Both the position numbers and the translations under genes were made by a program. Below, piece by piece: positions 1-5,556 of a DNA stretch of 13,856 nucleotides. The notes under the pieces are model-generated. The model was not told the origin of the DNA, did not search any database, and saw nothing but the letters and a program-made list of their open reading frames with translations. This stretch comes from Aquificota bacterium (GTDB lineage Bacteria > Thermosulfidibacterota > Thermosulfidibacteria > Thermosulfidibacterales > B14-G1). The stretch covers positions 1 to 13,856 of the forward strand of contig QMPS01000004.1 in NCBI GenBank assembly GCA_003648675.1. Reading direction: 5' to 3'. Numbering within the stretch: position 1 is the first letter of the stretch; the number at the start of each line of letters is the position of its first letter.

Positions 1-360
1 ACCTAACCCAATAGATATAAATACTTTTATCTTTTTGTGAGTTTTTTCTCTTATATCTCCTTGTTTGCCAGTGTGTTACGATTTTAGCTGTATTGAGTAT
101 CTAGGGGCTGTGCAACTGCACTGAATATTATAAACTGTGGATGAATTTTTAGATTTTTTGGTCATATGGGTCTTGACAAATCGTTTGATTAATGTCTAAC
201 TTTTCAAGGTCAATGATAGGACTTTTCAAGAGGAAGGGGGGTGAGAAGAGTGGAGGCTGCTGGGAGAAGTCCTTAGTTTTAGGGCAGTAAAAAGGTGATT
301 AGGAAGGTTGAGAGAGGGTAAGAGGTATCTAAAAAGTTTTTGGCTTTAGGAGGTGGAAAG
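1..360. other. AT-rich intergenic leader upstream of the SatP-type gene
   Basis: No convincing gene is visible in this stretch. The first 170 bases are AT-rich, with T-runs and a small palindrome at 110-121 (GTGCA, two bases, TGCAC). The clearest signal is the 20-base element at 172-191, which recurs upstream of the MFS transporter. From about 225 onward the + strand becomes very purine-rich, with several GGAGG/GGGGG patches. One patch precedes an 11-codon GTG-started frame (241-276) that I do not call. The long distance from the element to the transporter start implies a leader transcript of more than 100 nt if the element lies at the promoter. Confidence 0.6.
172..191 (+). promoter_or_regulatory. 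Shared 20-bp element, copy A (upstream of SatP-type gene)
   Basis: The sequence CTTGACAAATCGTTTGATTA matches the element at 3057-3076 at 19 of 20 positions, and both copies sit upstream of a carboxylate-transporter gene. It contains a consensus -35 hexamer (TTGACA at 173-178). It also has an inverted core, CAAA-NCG-TTTG, and a TTGAC/TTGAT direct repeat with a 12-base step. No good -10 lies 17 bases downstream (CTAACT). It could therefore be a -35 region of an activated promoter, an operator, or both. The shared location suggests co-regulation of the two transporters. Confidence 0.6.
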
Positions 361-936
361 ATGGCAGAATTTAGACCTTTGGCCAATCCTGCTCCTTTAG
401 GGCTGGGTGGCTTTGCTCTGACCACTTTTGTGCTCAACGTTCATAACGCTGGTATTCTAGCAGATGTAGGAACGGCCCTTCCTTTGGGGCTCTTCTATGG
501 TGGTTTGGCTCAGCTCTGTGCTGGTCTTCTGGAGTTCGGTACGGGTAATACCTTCGGGATGTGTGCTTTTGGGTCTTATGGTGCTTTCTGGATCTCTTTA
601 GCAACACTTATTTATTTCAAGGATAACAACGTCTTGCCAGGTTTCAAAGATTTTCACGGGGCTTTGCTGTGGACCCTCATTGCATGGACTATTTTTACTT
701 TCATCATGACCATAGCAACATTCCCCAAGGCCAAAGCCTTAATTGTCGTATTTGTGTCCCTGTTGATACTGTTTATCCTATTGGACATCCATGTGATAAC
801 TGGTAGTGCAGGTATTGGTCACTTTGCTGGCTGGGAGGGGATCTGGACGGCTTTCACCGCTTGGTATCTCATGGCGGCGGAGCTTATTAATCCTGCCTTT
901 GGCAAGGAAGTCCTGCCAATAGGAGCCCCTAAGTAA
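361..936 (+). CDS. SatP/YaaH (GPR1/FUN34) family acetate/succinate transporter
   Basis: This is an inner-membrane carboxylate transporter of the acetate uptake family; family members import acetate or succinate with protons or act as channels. The N-terminal signature is clear: [15 protein letters not shown] at residues 9-23, followed by about six hydrophobic spans and the family-like FGSYGAFW at 70-77. At 191 residues it has the usual family length. I chose ATG 361 because a strong AGGAGGTG site lies at 349-356; an upstream TTG at 340 would place that site inside the gene. The gene is preceded by a long leader with the shared 20-bp element and followed nine bases after its stop by a strong hairpin. 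Substrate choice (acetate, succinate or another short acid) cannot be read from the sequence. Confidence 0.9.
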
Positions 937-944
937 GGGTGTTG

Positions 945-992
945 GAGGTTGGGGAGGCAGGTAAAATGCTTCCCCAACCTCAATATTTTTCT
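945..992 (+). terminator. Terminator-like hairpin overlapping the next gene's start
   Basis: GAGGTTGGGGAGGCA (945-959) pairs with TGCTTCCCCAACCTC (967-981), giving a 15-bp stem with one G-T wobble around the loop GGTAAAA. AATATTTTTCT follows. This has the layout of an intrinsic terminator for the transporter gene. Unusually, the 5' arm contains the only good Shine-Dalgarno site (GGGGAGG, 951-957) for the next gene, and that gene's ATG (966-968) straddles the loop/stem edge. The hairpin may therefore act as a terminator, a leaky attenuator, or a lid on the ribosome site. Confidence 0.75.
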
Positions 993-1577
993 ATGAGAGG
1001 CCTGATCCTATACATAGGCTTTCCCCTTGGGGTGTTTTTGGTTCACTATCTCTTTTTGGGTGCTGTTGTGGGTCTTTCCTCCAAAAGGAGAGTGGTAGCC
1101 TTGTTGAACATGATTTTTTATCCCTTTTGCATGTCTCTTCTAGTTTCTGGCTTTTTTCTGTGGTTGTCTGGCAGAGACTATCGCTGTTTTATATCGTCTG
1201 TTGTGGCCGGAGTGGTTGGGTATTATTTCTCTCTGATTTTGGCTTTTGTTCCTTTCCTCGCCCCTTTGTTTAGGGAACTGGATATGGAGTTCCTTTTACT
1301 GGGAGTAGGTGCTGCCATGGGGATTCTTCATTCTTCCCCCCTTCAGTTTTTCAAAGCTTTGGGAGGGCTATTGGGTAGATACTCTTTCCCTTTGGTTTCG
1401 GTCTTCGTGGCTTCTCTGATAGCTTCCACTTTGGTTATGGATTTGATTTCTAGATCTGTGGTAGTAGGTTCTGAAAAAAGAGATATTCTAAAAAGTTTGG
1501 CTTGGGTGGTGAGTATTTCGGCTGGAGTGGTGGCGGTGCCTATAATTGTCTTTTTCCTCAGTTTAGGCGTCGCGTAA
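966..1577 (+). CDS. Unknown polytopic membrane protein
   Basis: I do not recognise this 203-residue protein. Hydrophobicity suggests five or six membrane spans, at roughly residues 12-38, 46-68, 74-100, 106-122, 139-162 and 174-201. Short basic loops (SSKRR at 38-42; SEKRDILK at 169-176) suggest orientation. No catalytic motif is visible. The start at ATG 966 is supported by GGGGAGG at 951-957, but both lie in the hairpin 945-981. An alternative is ATG 993, just after the hairpin, which lacks a ribosome site and would give 194 residues. It lies 29 bases after the SatP-type gene and just before another membrane-anchored protein, so the three may be one operon with reduced read-through. Confidence 0.7.
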   Translation: MLPQPQYFSMRGLILYIGFPLGVFLVHYLFLGAVVGLSSKRRVVALLNMIFYPFCMSLLVSGFFLWLSGRDYRCFISSVVAGVVGYYFSLILAFVPFLAPLFRELDMEFLLLGVGAAMGILHSSPLQFFKALGGLLGRYSFPLVSVFVASLIASTLVMDLISRSVVVGSEKRDILKSLAWVVSISAGVVAVPIIVFFLSLGVA

Positions 1578-1616
1578 TAACTCTTGTGGGGGTTGAGTGT
1601 GGGTTGGCTGGAGAGA

Positions 1617-2087
1617 ATGAAAGAGATGGACATCGTGAAGCTTAGAATTTTGGTTTTTACGCTTTTGGTGTTCTCTTTCCTCTTTGCTTTGGCTCTTTTG
1701 AAGATAGGAGCGGAGAGGCTAGGGCTCATCGGAGGTGTGCCGCCCCTTTTGAAGTTGGTGGAAGACAAGGAAATAGTGGTGAAGGGGGATGATATTGATG
1801 CCATCAACAAGAGTCTTGGTAAAAAAGTTGTAGTGGAAGATAGAATAAAGAGGGTTGATTCCTATCCCGACGAAGGACTCTGGGTAGTTAAACTGACTTA
1901 TATTTCAGTACCTTTAGGTGAGGAGCGCGTATGGGAGCTTAGGAAGAAGGGGATAGCCTTGGATAGCGTTGAAGGGATGGCGGTGAGAGTGGAAGGGGTT
2001 TTGAAAATTCATCCCATATATGGCTTGCAGCTTTCCCTATCTAAGAACTCCAACCTTAACTTTGTTACTGGCAGGGTGGGGCGCTAG
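1617..2087 (+). CDS. Membrane-anchored protein of unknown function, possible OB-like domain
   Basis: This 156-residue protein has one N-terminal hydrophobic span (about residues 8-30) and a soluble remainder of about 120 residues with alternating beta-type stretches: GKKVVVEDRIKRV at 68-80, LWVVKLTYISV at 88-98 and GMAVRVEGVLKIHPIYGLQL at 120-139. That pattern would suit an OB-like barrel, but I cannot assign a family. The span probably serves as an anchor or uncleaved signal. The start is uncertain. ATG 1617 and ATG 1626 both lack a well-spaced Shine-Dalgarno; GTG 1599 has GGGGGT at 1587-1592 and would add six residues; TTG 1584 is also open. It follows the membrane protein by about 40 bases and converges on hsp20, with 11 bases between the stops. 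Confidence 0.65.
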   Translation: MKEMDIVKLRILVFTLLVFSFLFALALLKIGAERLGLIGGVPPLLKLVEDKEIVVKGDDIDAINKSLGKKVVVEDRIKRVDSYPDEGLWVVKLTYISVPLGEERVWELRKKGIALDSVEGMAVRVEGVLKIHPIYGLQLSLSKNSNLNFVTGRVGR

Positions 2088-2098
2088 AGGCTAGTTGC

Positions 2099-2650
2099 TT
2101 ATTCTATAGGTATTTCCTTTCCTTTTTCTGCTTTTGGTATGACTATTTTTAGCGTTCCCCCTTCGAATTTAGCTTTAGCATTGTCTTGGTCCACTTCCAG
2201 AGGCAGCGGAATTCTTCTTAGAAAAGTGTCAAAATATCTTTCAAAACGATAGAGAGCTCTGTCTTCCACTTCCTTGAGGATTTTGTTCTTCCTCTCTCCA
2301 GAGATGGCGATTTCTCTCCTTTTTACTTCTAATTTAATCTCGTCCTTTTGGAAGCCTGGGATGTCGGCTAAGATCACCAAATTGTCTCCTTCTTCGTAAA
2401 TGTCGACCGGGGGAAAGGAAGGGACAGCTCCGAAGGGAATCTGCATAGGATCTAGACCATCAAAGTAGGTTGGAGACGGTTCTGTTCCGCCGAAGTAGGT
2501 GGGATACTGGCCACTCCAATCAAAGTAGTCAGGGGATGGTTCTGTTCCTCCAAAAACTTCTTGTGGCCTTTCAGGTCCTCCAAATGCCCATCTCATCTTC
2601 CATCCTGTTTTCCACTTTTCCCGTTCTCTTGCCCATCTTCTCATAGGCAT
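2099..2650 (-). CDS. Small heat-shock protein, Hsp20/alpha-crystallin family
   Basis: This is an ATP-independent holdase chaperone that binds unfolding proteins, normally as large oligomers. The alpha-crystallin domain runs from about residue 80 to 173: [21 protein letters not shown] at the start, FLRRIPLP at 143-150 and the hallmark GTLKIVIPK at 165-173. The C-terminal IPI (180-182) matches the I-x-I oligomerisation motif. The N-terminal arm is unusual. Residues 1-22 are basic and Trp-rich (W6, W13, W17, W21), and residues 23-82 form six ten-residue units. The start is supported by AGGAGG eight bases upstream on the minus strand. It is the only minus-strand gene here and is probably transcribed from its own promoter in the AT-rich region to its right. 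No CIRCE operator is visible. Confidence 0.93.
2405..2584 (-). repeat. Six in-frame 30-bp units coding a decapeptide array in Hsp20
   Basis: Residues 23-82 divide into [50 protein letters not shown] and [10 protein letters not shown]. Phe recurs exactly every ten residues at 23, 33, 43, 53, 63 and 73, and the best units share [10 protein letters not shown]. At the DNA level 2461-2494 and 2521-2554 match at 27 of 34 positions, with a 60-bp offset. This points to tandem duplication followed by drift, not chance composition. Outer units are more diverged, and the last merges into the alpha-crystallin domain. Confidence 0.8.
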
Positions 2651-3151
2651 AACTTTTCCCTCCTTTCCTTTAATAGTGGCCTCTATGCCCCACCGTATCT
2701 GTGTTTAGTATTAATAAATTAAAGATGTTTTAGGACTTTAGTAAGTGCAATCCATTTGTTTTATTTATTTCTTTCTTATTCCAGTTGTATTTTTTTCCTG
2801 CTTTTTTTGTGGTCCACTGTAGAGCAGATCCACGAGTACTTAGCGACCAGAATTAGTTTATGTTGGAAATTTTATTGTTTGGACAAAGCCCATTTTGTTT
2901 CGAAGCTTATTAATAAACTTTTATATATCGCTTATGTTTATTTAAACTAAAACTTTTTATGTTTAGTCTACATGGTGCTTAACATTCTGAAATATTGTAG
3001 TATATGGCTAATCTGACATGATTTTAATGTTGTCACTATAATTGTTGCCTACAGTACTTGACAAAGCGTTTGATTAGGTGTAAAGACTTTATACCAGCAG
3101 CAAAATGGCGTATTATTAATTCCGACGGGAAGGAGGTGGTAACGGAGGGAT
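2651..3151. other. AT-rich intergenic region between divergent hsp20 and MFS genes
   Basis: About 500 bases without a supported gene, clearly richer in A+T than the surrounding coding DNA. It should hold the hsp20 promoter (minus strand) near 2680-2760, where TAATACT-like hexamers occur but no confident -35 partner. It also holds the MFS promoter near 3057-3090. A 64-codon frame at 2756-2950 has a TTG start with no ribosome site and no recognisable product, so I do not call it. A loose inverted repeat, TGACA/TGTCA, lies at about 3014-3035. The stretch 3121-3150 turns purine-rich, with AAGGAGGTGG at 3130-3139. Confidence 0.55.
3057..3076 (+). promoter_or_regulatory. Shared 20-bp element, copy B (upstream of OFA-type MFS gene)
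   Basis: The sequence CTTGACAAAGCGTTTGATTA differs at one base from the copy at 172-191. The -35-like TTGACA is at 3058-3063, and 17 bases further on is TAAAGA (3081-3086), a poor -10. The palindromic core CAAA-NCG-TTTG is intact. The element lies about 140 bases before the transporter ATG and 76 bases before the possible leader ORF. Confidence 0.6.
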
Positions 3152-3217
3152 ATGAACAGAGGGTTTGAGGCTTCGGATTTTTTTGTAAAAATTTTTTGTA
3201 AGGGGAGGGTTTTATGA
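3152..3217 (+). CDS. Possible 21-residue leader peptide overlapping the MFS start
   Basis: ATG 3152 opens a 21-codon frame (starting MNRGFEASDFF) whose TGA (3215-3217) overlaps the ATG of the MFS gene as ATGA, a classic layout for translational coupling. A GGAGGG lies at 3144-3149, somewhat close to the ATG, and a stronger AAGGAGGTGG lies at 3130-3139, somewhat far. The frame contains an FF and a run of T-rich codons and has no recognisable homologue. It could be a chance frame, because the MFS gene has its own good site (AGGGGAGGG, 3201-3209). Confidence 0.35.
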   Translation: MNRGFEASDFFVKIFCKGRVL

Positions 3218-4467
3218 ATAGGTGGATTATTTGTTTGGCGGGGACCGGTATAAACTTGGTCCTTGGAGTGCTTTACTCCTGGAGTATTTTCGTTGTGCCC
3301 CTCCAGGAGAAATTTGGATGGAGCAGGGCAGACCTTACCTGGCCCTTCTCCGTCTCCATCTTGGTCTTTGCCGTTGTTATGGTGGCGGCAGGGAAGTGGC
3401 AGGACAAGGTGGGCCCCAGATTGGTGGCATCGGTTGGTGGTGTTCTGATGGGGATTGGTTATATTCTGAGTGGTTTTGTTTCCAGTCTTCCGGCTCTTAT
3501 CTTCACCTTCGGTGTCATAGCGGGCGCTGGCGTGGCCTGCGGTTACGTGACACCTATTGCTGCCACAGTGAAGTGGTTCCCTGACAAGAGGGGGTTGACC
3601 ACAGGGATCACCGTTTCGGGCTTTGGCTTTGGTGCTTTTGTTTTCACTCCCTTGGCCAGGAAACTCATTGTGGCTGTGGGCGTTATGACGGCTTTCAAGG
3701 TTTTGGGAGTGATCTTTTTGATTATTGTGGTGGCCTTGGCCCAGATTCTGAGGAACCCTCCTCCTGGTTACAAACCGGAGGGTTGGGAGCCTCCTGCTCC
3801 TACGGAGACTAAGAAGGTGGCTGTCAGAGATTGGACCCTTTCTGAGGCCATCAAGACATGGTCTTTCTGGTCTCTCTGGTTGGCTTACCTGGGCAACGCT
3901 GGTGTTGGACTCATGGTCATCTCTCTCATTGCTCCCTTGGCAAAAACTTATGGTATTTCTCAGGAGACGGCGGCCTTCCTCATTGGATTCCTCTCCATTT
4001 TTAACGGTTTAGGAAGGATTTTGGCTGGTTGGGTGTCTGATTTGATAGGCAGAAGGGCTGCCATGTTGGTATTCTTCAGTATTACTACTCTCATGTGCAT
4101 TACCATGGCTTTCACCAACATTGCGGGAACCACTGTGGGATACGCCTTGGCTCTTATGATCTTTGGTGCTTCTTACGGTTCTAACTTTGCCCTCTTCCCC
4201 GCAGCTACTGCTGATTACTTTGGCACCAAGAACTTGGGCAACTTGTACGCCGGTGTCTTCACTGCCTGGGGCTTTGCCGGTTTTGTTGGTCCCAGGTTTA
4301 TCAAGGCCAGGCTGCTCAAGAGCATTCCCAAGAAGCTAATGGCTCAAGGTATGCCCAAAGAGCAGGCTAACCTAGTGGCCTATAAGACGGCTTTTAAGGT
4401 GGCCATCGGTCTGGGTGTTTTGGCTGTGGTGATGTCCTTCCTCACCAGGCATCCTAAAGAGGATTGA
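3214..4467 (+). CDS. MFS transporter, OFA (oxalate/formate antiporter) family
   Basis: This is an inner-membrane major-facilitator carrier, probably for a small carboxylate; OFA members exchange or co-transport oxalate, formate, lactate or pyruvate-like acids. The 417 residues give about twelve spans. OFA features are clear: GVLYSWSIFVVPLQEKFGW at 18-36, the loop 2-3 motif GKWQDKVGPR at 60-69, WFPDKRGLTTGI at 121-132, NPPPGYKPEGWEPP after span six (181-194), and ATADYFGTKNLGNLYAGVFT with AWGFAGFVGP at 331-360. A short charged insert at about 361-385 (RFIKARLLKSIPKK and on) separates the last spans. The start at ATG 3214 has AGGGGAGGG just upstream. A hairpin terminator follows 28 bases after the stop. 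The substrate is not determinable here; the upstream element is shared with the SatP-type gene. Confidence 0.9.
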   Translation: MNRWIICLAGTGINLVLGVLYSWSIFVVPLQEKFGWSRADLTWPFSVSILVFAVVMVAAGKWQDKVGPRLVASVGGVLMGIGYILSGFVSSLPALIFTFGVIAGAGVACGYVTPIAATVKWFPDKRGLTTGITVSGFGFGAFVFTPLARKLIVAVGVMTAFKVLGVIFLIIVVALAQILRNPPPGYKPEGWEPPAPTETKKVAVRDWTLSEAIKTWSFWSLWLAYLGNAGVGLMVISLIAPLAKTYGISQETAAFLIGFLSIFNGLGRILAGWVSDLIGRRAAMLVFFSITTLMCITMAFTNIAGTTVGYALALMIFGASYGSNFALFPAATADYFGTKNLGNLYAGVFTAWGFAGFVGPRFIKARLLKSIPKKLMAQGMPKEQANLVAYKTAFKVAIGLGVLAVVMSFLTRHPKED

Positions 4468-4545: not shown

Positions 4546-5556
4546 TTGCGGTGTAGAATGGTCATGGCAACGGTTTTTTTGCTGGTTTTTGCTTTTAGTG
4601 GCTGGGCTGGTGAGTGGGTGTTGTTCACCCGTGAGAACACGGGACTTCCATCGGCTGCCGTTTGGGATCTTATGAAGGATGGCAGGGGTTGGTATTGGTT
4701 TGGCACGGGAGGGGGCATTGCCCTTTTTCGTCAGGGGAAGTGGGCCTTGTTCACTCCCAAGAACACCGAAAGGGCTCTCAAAGGTAAATCTGTGGTGAAG
4801 ATTTTCCAGGACACAGAGGGTGTCTACTGGTTTGCTACCCGAAGGAGTTTTATTGGAGGAGGGGGGGTGACCCGATATGACGGTAAGCACTGGCAGCTCT
4901 GGGATAAAGAGAGGACGGGTGGAGGGCTGCCCAGTGACTACGTGTGGGATATTGTGGAGGATTCCCAAGGGAGGCTCTGGTTTGCCACAGACAAGGGAGT
5001 TTCTTGTTACGACGGGGAGCGCTGGTATCTGTATAATAGAACCAATACGGGACTGGGGCTTCCAGGGGATTCCGTGTGGGACATCTTCGTAGATAAGGGG
5101 GGCGACCTTTGGTTTGCTACTGATAAGGGTGTCGGGTGGTTTAACGGTAAGGAGTGGAGGAATCTGACCAAGTTTAACAGTGGGTTGCCCCGGGCCAATA
5201 TATCCGTCGTCTTTCAGGATAGTGATGGTAATTTTTGGTTTGGCTCCAGGAGCGGTTTGTGGGGAGGAGGTGGACTCATCTTTTATGATGGCACCAAATG
5301 GAAGTTGTACACCAGAAAGAACACTCACGGGGGCCTGCCCCACAATGATATAAATGTCATATTCCAAGACAGCAATGGTGCTGTGTGGGTGGGGACCAGG
5401 AGAGGTGTGGCCAGGTTTCAAGGGGGGAAGTGGCAAGCCTTTCTGAAAAATGAACCTGTGTGGGACATTATGGAAGATGGGAAGAACCTTTTCTTTGCTG
5501 TTTCCCGGGGTGTGGCCGTTTTGGTGGGTGACTCTCCTCCCCCTTGGGGTAGATAG
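4546..5556 (+). CDS. Secreted seven-blade beta-propeller protein (two-component-regulator propeller repeats)
   Basis: The 336-residue protein begins with a signal peptide (basic MRCR, hydrophobic core 6-19, likely cleavage near WAG-E at 20-23), so it is exported. The rest is a series of propeller repeats of the kind found in the sensor halves of hybrid histidine kinases: VWDIxxDxxGxLWFATxxGVxxYDGxxW. Blade cores fall at WFGT 51-54, WFAT 95-98, WFAT 145-148, WFAT 189-192, WFGS 231-234, WVGT 281-284 and a degenerate FFAV 316-319, giving seven blades. No kinase, transmembrane or output domain follows. The TTG start at 4546 is chosen because GAGGAGG lies five bases upstream; ATG 4558 would be 17 bases away. 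It lies just after the MFS terminator and nine bases before a carbonic anhydrase gene. The ligand is unknown. Confidence 0.85.
   Translation: MRCRMVMATVFLLVFAFSGWAGEWVLFTRENTGLPSAAVWDLMKDGRGWYWFGTGGGIALFRQGKWALFTPKNTERALKGKSVVKIFQDTEGVYWFATRRSFIGGGGVTRYDGKHWQLWDKERTGGGLPSDYVWDIVEDSQGRLWFATDKGVSCYDGERWYLYNRTNTGLGLPGDSVWDIFVDKGGDLWFATDKGVGWFNGKEWRNLTKFNSGLPRANISVVFQDSDGNFWFGSRSGLWGGGGLIFYDGTKWKLYTRKNTHGGLPHNDINVIFQDSNGAVWVGTRRGVARFQGGKWQAFLKNEPVWDIMEDGKNLFFAVSRGVAVLVGDSPPPWGR

What the first reader, a model, noticed from the sequence alone, without database searches (positions are those of the whole stretch)
172..3076. One 20-bp element upstream of two different carboxylate transporters
CTTGACAAATCGTTTGATTA at 172-191 and the copy at 3057-3076 match at 19 of 20 bases, while the surrounding leader sequences do not align. 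The genes downstream belong to unrelated families (SatP/YaaH and OFA-type MFS), yet both families move small carboxylates. The element has a palindromic CAAA-NCG-TTTG core fused to a TTGACA hexamer, and neither copy has a good -10. That suggests an operator or activated promoter that defines a small carboxylate-uptake regulon.
Basis: partly seen in the sequence, partly recalled or inferred. Interest (0 to 1): 0.72.

Follow-up and report, generated by a model that had tools for sequence, protein, structure and literature searches.

The report
Shared operator-like promoter of two transporters
Two neighbouring genes for importing small organic acids (one acetate-type, one lactate-type) carry the same strictly conserved 20-base site inside their promoters in an uncultured bacterial lineage, which suggests that one still unknown regulator switches both; the arrangement is of an ordinary kind, but unusually small and clean.

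Summary
The 20-mers at 172-191 and 3057-3076 match at 19/20, are the only such pair in the window and the only copies in the held assembly at up to 3 mismatches. In relatives, CTTGACAAA-NN-GTTTGATTA stands before satP in 5 of 5 genomes of the family and before the MFS gene in 3 of 3 genomes of the genus. All 18 specified positions are invariant in the 8 copies; between genera the satP flanks are 34-37% identical, and the two centre bases vary. The five family genomes hold no one-mismatch version, and other TTGACA sites of the lineage lack the spacer sequence. TTGACA is the -35 hexamer; the rest fills the 17-bp spacer. Best reading: an operator buried in a sigma-70 promoter, shared by two transporters. 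Corrections: the MFS gene is SfMCT-like (L-lactate), not oxalate/formate-like; the 'CG' of the proposed core is not conserved; the regulon is two promoters 2.9 kb apart. Against: the same 20-mer occurs by chance elsewhere, in three unrelated organisms inside good promoters. The regulator is unidentified; repression versus activation is open. New member of a known kind, modest interest.

The parts
172..191 (+). Element copy 1, CTTGACAAATCGTTTGATTA, upstream of satP
173..178 (+). TTGACA, -35 hexamer of the satP promoter
   Evidence: TTGACA at a comparable place also before satP of G005, G006 and G008, two of which (G005, G008) lack the rest of the element
196..201 (+). Weak -10 candidate CTAACT at 17-bp spacing, preceded by TG one base upstream as in an extended -10 (195-200, TCTAAC, is the 4/6 alternative at 16 bp)
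   Evidence: TG conserved in the 5 satP copies
361..936 (+). satP, acetate uptake transporter (AceTr/SatP/YaaH family)
   Evidence: PF01184 141 bits; NF038013 172.9 against cut-off 50; PDB 5zug, 5ys3
939..1577 (+). Probable membrane protein of unknown family directly after satP, likely co-transcribed (by position)
   Evidence: no Pfam or NCBIfam match; similar ORF after satP in G001, G002, G003 by reading
1584..2087 (+). Second unknown ORF of the satP cluster
   Evidence: no Pfam or NCBIfam match; similar ORF in G001, G002, G003 by reading
3057..3076 (+). Element copy 2, CTTGACAAAGCGTTTGATTA, upstream of the MFS gene
3058..3063 (+). TTGACA, -35 hexamer of the MFS promoter
3081..3086 (+). Weak -10 candidate TAAAGA at 17-bp spacing
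   Evidence: 3/6; TAAAGA also in G001, TAATGG in G002
3214..4467 (+). MFS transporter of the SfMCT (L-lactate) type
   Evidence: NF049980 424.1 bits against cut-off 320; best solved relative 6g9x, 3.8e-71

Best explanation
The 20-mer is an operator embedded in a housekeeping (sigma-70-type) promoter. TTGACA serves as the -35 hexamer; AA-NN-GTTTGATTA, filling most of the 17-bp spacer, is read together with it by one DNA-binding regulator. The same site stands before the acetate-type satP cluster and the SfMCT-type lactate/monocarboxylate transporter, so one signal would switch both importers. Shown: position, orientation, strict conservation, restriction to these promoters in the family, and absence of the spacer motif from other TTGACA sites examined. 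Inferred: that a protein binds it; that this protein is a repressor covering -35 and spacer (somewhat more likely than an activator helping a weak -10); that the signal concerns small monocarboxylates.
For: 18 of 18 specified positions invariant in 8 copies (5 satP, 3 MFS) from 5 genomes; between genera the satP flanks are 37% (30 bases upstream) and 34% (26 downstream) identical, the MFS flanks within the genus 36% and 53%. In the five family genomes, ACAAANNGTTTGATTA gives exactly these 8 sites at 0 mismatches and none at 1. Of 175 distinct TTGACA sites in fetched DNA, the 8 score 11/11 in the spacer, one (inside a gene) 9, six 7, the other 160 six or fewer. G006 satP keeps a degenerate copy at the same place (3 mismatches; 1 of 200 shuffles as good). 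Both genes encode monocarboxylate-type transporters.
Against: No regulator found, and no family regulator gene seen with a copy in its control region. The dyad is imperfect: 5 of 8 position pairs, 2 expected (hand calculation, chance about 0.03). At 2 mismatches the family genomes hold 31 further sites against 22 for the reversed control, and in nine order genomes there are 12 further 3-mismatch sites against 2: a mild excess of look-alikes. The 20-mer with free centre also occurs in 19 unrelated records, three of them inside good TTGACA-17-TATAAT-like promoters (L072, L076, L078), so part of the sequence suits promoters in general. Within the genus the satP flanks are still 74-85% identical, so that comparison adds little.
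Confidence: 0.65

Rival explanations
1. Generic promoter: the motif is just a favoured -35/spacer sequence for sigma-70 promoters, with no dedicated regulator.
For: TTGACAAA recurs at other promoters (e.g. before one TetR group); 3 of the 6 unrelated hits outside ORFs lie in good promoters; a mild excess of look-alikes.
Against: The 43 other TTGACA sites with a -10 of at least 4/6 do not share the spacer; the spacer is conserved where the -10 is not; no 1-mismatch sites in five genomes.
Confidence: 0.15
2. Activator site: a positive regulator bound in the spacer or further upstream turns on promoters that are weak because of a poor -10.
For: -10 hexamers of at most 4/6 in the element-bearing promoters (recorded for all 8).
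Against: The spacer is 17 bp, not the 19-20 bp that MerR-type activators need (recalled; 19 bp for mer is in the abstract start of PMC11049809); an element covering -35 to about -17 would hinder sigma; the satP promoter of G008 without the element has only a 4/6 -10 too (my count).
Confidence: 0.25
3. The regulator is the TetR protein (group A) found in all five family genomes and not in the other four, encoded beside acetate-CoA ligase-like genes.
For: Of 19 groups formed from TetR, ArsR and GntR proteins it alone matches the element's distribution exactly. Neighbours carry CoA-binding/succinyl-CoA-ligase-like and ATP-grasp domains; in G001 also a lactate/malate-dehydrogenase-like protein (TIGR02717 matches lie below its cut-off).
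Against: Its own control regions lack the element (best 4-6 mismatches) and by eye carry another repeated motif around CCTTNCGAAAGG. The match is post hoc, in nine genomes.
Confidence: 0.1
4. The regulator is a TetR protein of group F type, whose own start region carries the palindrome TCAATCA-AACGAT-TGATTGA; the right half of the element read backwards (AATCAAAC) equals one half of that site.
For: AATCAAACGATT is shared, letter for letter, by the reverse complement of copy 1 and the group F site in G002, G007 and G008; the G008 site is within 3 mismatches of the element.
Against: Group F was found in G000, G002, G007 and G008 but not in G001, G003 or G004 (93-96% complete), which have the element; the other half differs; AATCAAACGA is not kept in most copies because the centre varies. 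Found by looking through 12 look-alikes, so selected after the fact.
Confidence: 0.05

Closest known systems
Operator overlapping the -35 and spacer of a sigma-70 promoter (classical repressor/operator pairs; recalled)
   Same: Site between and over core promoter elements, partial dyad, shared by genes of one function
   Different: Regulator unknown; only two targets; left half coincides with the -35 hexamer
LacI/CcpA-type operators with a central CG (recalled)
   Same: The window copies read CAAA-NCG-TTTG
   Different: The centre varies freely in relatives: no conserved central CG
Lactate regulators of the GntR/LldR type (recalled; GdhR control of an L-lactate permease gene seen as an abstract start, PMC6957213)
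   Same: Control of a lactate importer
   Different: No GntR orthologue common to the family: genus and sister-genus proteins fall in separate groups; operator form differs (recalled)
SfMCT L-lactate transporter of Syntrophobacter fumaroxidans (PDB 6g9x; PMC6573034, passages read)
   Same: Window MFS protein passes the equivalog cut-off; L28, Y119, N276, R280, Y331, F335 kept (my reading of the alignment)
   Different: L145 is F; H250 and D257 of the proton site are L and T
SatP/AceTr acetate transporters (PDB 5zug, 5ys3)
   Same: Family, length and N-terminal NPAPLGL motif
   Different: Embedded in a cluster with two ORFs of unknown family

Membership tests
sigma-70-type promoter | TTGACA hexamer | tested here: met
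   exact in all 8 copies
sigma-70-type promoter | Good -10 hexamer at 16-18 bp | tested here: inconclusive
   best 3/6 or 4/6 in the 8 copies; TG of an extended -10 in the 5 satP copies; G002 MFS has TATAAT at 15 bp (reading)
Operator of a small regulon | Conserved beyond flanks across species | tested here: met
Operator of a small regulon | Copies confined to promoters of functionally related genes | tested here: met
   8 of 8 exact sites in five genomes are before satP or the SfMCT-like gene; two-mismatch look-alikes: 22 of 31 inspected, 18 in ORFs, 1 overlapping an ORF end, 3 outside, none with a carboxylate transporter downstream by reading
Operator of a small regulon | Bound by a regulator | not testable with these tools
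   no binding data
LacI/CcpA cre-type site | Central CG | tested here: not met
   centres vary
CRP/FNR regulon | A CRP-type regulator in every genome with the element | tested here: not met
   G003 (96% complete) has no match over the PF13545 cut-off
GntR/LldR-type lactate regulon | GntR orthologue in all element-bearing genomes | tested here: not met
   none found in G000 (73% complete); separate groups in g1 and g2
MerR-type activation | 19-20 bp spacer | tested here: not met
   element-bearing promoters have 17-bp geometry, but the -10 is not certain
SfMCT L-lactate transporter | Score over the NCBIfam equivalog cut-off | tested here: met
   424.1 against 320 bits
SfMCT L-lactate transporter | Proton-site residues H250, D257 | tested here: not met
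   L and T in the alignment; roles from PMC6573034
Oxalate/formate antiporter | Score over the model cut-off | tested here: not met
   TIGR00890 259.6 against 374.85; TIGR04259 214.6 against 335

The most novel reading that the evidence does not exclude
A regulator not yet described controls, in the genus, exactly two promoters per genome through an operator whose left half has been merged with the -35 hexamer (ideal TAATCAAA-N3-TTTGATTA, left half reshaped to TTGACAAA), coupling acetate and lactate import as a minimal two-promoter regulon of this uncultured lineage.
Probability: 0.25. Interest if true: 0.45.

Novelty: new member of a known kind. Interest (0 to 1): 0.36.

Why it matters
It offers a testable control site for organic-acid uptake in a lineage seen here only as genome assemblies, and a clean case of a promoter spacer better conserved than its -10. 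It re-labels the second transporter as lactate-type, which makes joint acetate/lactate uptake the likely physiology. The principle (shared operator, small regulon) is textbook.

Tried and rejected
Scattered copies: rejected for the family. One search (nine order genomes, TTGACAAANCGTTTGATTA, up to 3 mismatches) gave 20 matches: the 8 satP/MFS sites and 12 at 3 mismatches; the reversed control gave 2. Of the 12, 9 lie in ORFs of at least 80 aa and 3 do not (G007:C12, G008:C59, G008:C160); the 4 in family genomes are among the 9, one of them (G004:C84) at the called start of its ORF. One search (five family genomes) gave 39 matches: 8 at 0, none at 1, 31 at 2 mismatches; 22 of the 31 were inspected: 18 in ORFs, 1 overlapping an ORF end, 3 outside. 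The other 9 had no locus and were not inspected. Of 14 look-alikes read, 12 lie in ORFs of at least 60 aa (one, L184, a doubtful 66-aa ORF between longer genes) and 2 at gene starts.

Wider genomes: one search found 24 loci for CTTGACAAANNGTTTGATTA; 5 are the four relatives, 19 unrelated. Of the 19, 13 lie in ORFs of at least 70 aa and 6 do not; three of the 6 had no downstream ORF of that size within 500 bases, the other three none resembling SatP or MCT by eye. An earlier count said 12 and 7; 13 and 6 is right. It also calls the weak matches chance inside genes, which is too sweeping: see above.

Ideal palindrome TAATCAAANNNTTTGATTA (nine genomes): the element sites themselves match at 3 mismatches; those at 2 mismatches inspected in the family (G000:C18, G001:C14) lie in ORFs. 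Most of the G005-G008 matches were not inspected.

Distant satP/MCT genes: 17 other upstream regions; G006 satP (3 mismatches) and G002 satP2 (4 mismatches; not seen in G001 satP2) each reached by 1 of 200 shuffles; the rest by 9 or more.

Regulator: PF00440, PF01022, PF00392 and PF13545 searched in nine genomes. One search grouped 42 of 42 TetR, 26 of 30 ArsR (four weakest dropped) and 7 of 7 GntR matches into 19 groups. Upstream regions of all 42 TetR genes were scanned. LysR, MarR, XRE, LacI, AraC and two-component families were not surveyed.

Leader ORFs: no peptide shared by all leaders. Rfam, gathering threshold: 0 matches in the window.

Literature: searches were read as listings and abstract starts; none of those listed describes this element. 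Only passages of PMC6573034 were read.
Full report
The held assembly (1.24 Mb, 241 contigs, 73% complete) has no third copy at up to 3 mismatches. Missing sequence could hide one, but G001-G004, 91-96% complete, show none either.

Relatives decide the question. Eight other genomes of the order are held. satP was found in G001-G006 and G008, not in G007 (71% complete); the G005 copy reads with one stop inside. Close relatives of the MFS gene were found in G001 and G002 (98 and 97% identical) and G005 (86%). The element TTGACAAA-NN-GTTTGATTA, always preceded by C, lies upstream of satP in G000, G001, G002 (one genus), G003 and G004 (sister genus), and upstream of the MFS gene in G000, G001 and G002. 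Anchored on TTGACA without gaps, the hexamer and spacer core are 100% identical in every comparison among these 8, while for satP between genera the 30 bases upstream are 37% and the 26 bases downstream 34% identical; for the MFS gene within the genus 36% and 53%. The two centre bases behave like flanks. Within the genus the satP flanks are still 74-85% identical, so the weight rests on the first two comparisons.

Outside the family the element fades. G006 satP keeps TTGACAAGCTGTTCTATTA at the same place (8 of 11 spacer positions). G008 and G005 satP and G005 MFS have a TTGACA upstream followed by other sequence. This fits TTGACA being a true -35 and the spacer motif an added feature under its own selection.

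The motif is not simply promoter sequence of this lineage. Among 175 distinct TTGACA sites in 523,023 fetched bases (overlapping loci, mostly family, some from the rest of the order), the eight element sites score 11/11 for the spacer, one site inside a gene 9, six 7, the other 160 six or fewer; the 43 others with a -10 of at least 4/6 show no such spacer. Without the first three bases, the motif gives the eight sites at 0 mismatches, none at 1 and 31 at 2 in the five family genomes, against 22 for the reversed control. So there are two targets in this genus and one in the sister genus.

Against this stand look-alikes. In nine genomes 12 further sites lie within 3 mismatches (control 2); 9 are in ORFs. 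A scan of the genome collection for the 20-mer with free centre gave 24 loci: five from contigs whose lengths and sites equal those of G001 (JAJSAC01, titled Thermodesulfobacteriota bacterium), G002 (JALUVF01), G003 (WFSL01) and G004 (WFSI01, both titled Aquificota bacterium), and 19 from unrelated organisms. Thirteen of the 19 are in ORFs; of the six others, L072, L076 and L078 have CATTAT, TATAAT and TATACT 17 bases after TTGACA (my reading). The sequence is therefore compatible with strong promoters in general; its strict conservation with a poor -10 is what sets this family apart.

The genes. SatP passes the cut-off of the acetate uptake family and matches solved SatP structures. The MFS protein passes the SfMCT L-lactate cut-off and falls below those of the oxalate/formate models; its best solved relative is SfMCT 6g9x (3.8e-71), ahead of the oxalate transporter 8hpj (2.3e-40). 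Reading the alignment with residue roles from PMC6573034 (passages), L28, Y119, N276, R280, Y331 and F335 are kept, L145 is F, and H250 and D257 of the proton site are L and T. A monocarboxylate is likely, lactate plausible, coupling uncertain.

How it most likely works. The site covers -35 to about -17. A regulator bound there would compete with sigma at the -35, the classical place of a repressor. The dyad is CAAA-N3-TTTG plus an outer T/A pair; positions 2-4 (TGA) do not pair with 16-18 (ATT), as expected if the left half had to remain a -35 hexamer while the right half keeps the regulator's preference. That is inference; no unconstrained palindrome was found before a family regulator gene among the sites inspected. 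A tandem reading (TTGA at 1-4 and 13-16) is as possible from sequence alone, and activation is not excluded.

The regulator. None is adjacent: upstream of satP in G001-G003 lie an acetyltransferase-like gene, argF and argG (reading); between the targets lie two unknown ORFs and an hsp20 gene on the other strand. One TetR group (A) has exactly the element's distribution and sits beside acetate-CoA-ligase-like genes, but its control regions lack the element. A second group (F) carries at its own start TCAATCAAACGATTGATTGA or close forms, sharing the half AATCAAAC with the element, but it was not found in three of the five element-bearing genomes. So a TetR-type reader is a reasonable lead, no more. 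GntR and CRP fail on distribution.

Verdict. A real, conserved, promoter-embedded operator-like site shared by two monocarboxylate importers: a new member of a known kind, with regulator and sign of control open.

Noticed in passing
window 235-241 and 3131-3137: A ribosome-binding-site-like stretch (AGGRGGT type) lies 42-54 bases after the element and 74-119 bases before the start codon in all 8 leaders, also by eye in satP leaders of G005, G006 and G008. Perhaps a 5' mRNA stabiliser or leader-peptide start.
   Followed up: partly
window 3105-3120 region; G001 and G002 MFS leaders: GCAAAATRGCGTATTATTAA-like block is almost invariant in the three MFS leaders downstream of the promoter; role unknown.
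   Followed up: no
window 939-2087: Two ORFs without Pfam or NCBIfam match follow satP and recur, by reading, after satP in G001, G002 and G003.
   Followed up: no
window 4546-5556: Protein of two-component-regulator-type propeller repeats (PF07494) without a kinase domain follows the MFS gene.
   Followed up: no
L054-L063, L207, L209, L210, L254 (TetR group F): A TetR gene in G000, G002, G007 and G008 has a near-perfect palindrome TCAATCA-AACGAT-TGATTGA just before or at its start, a likely self-operator.
   Followed up: partly
L038, L260, L265-L269 (TetR group A): TetR group A beside acetate-CoA-ligase-like genes has its own repeated motif around CCTTNCGAAAGG by eye.
   Followed up: partly
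L016, L023 (G001:C15): G001 has a second, incomplete relative of the MFS gene in two pieces with a stop inside.
   Followed up: no
L044, L045: A second satP gene (about 50% identical) in G001 and G002 lacks the element; its G002 leader has a look-alike with a longer centre (TTGACAAAATGTGTTTGTA).
   Followed up: partly
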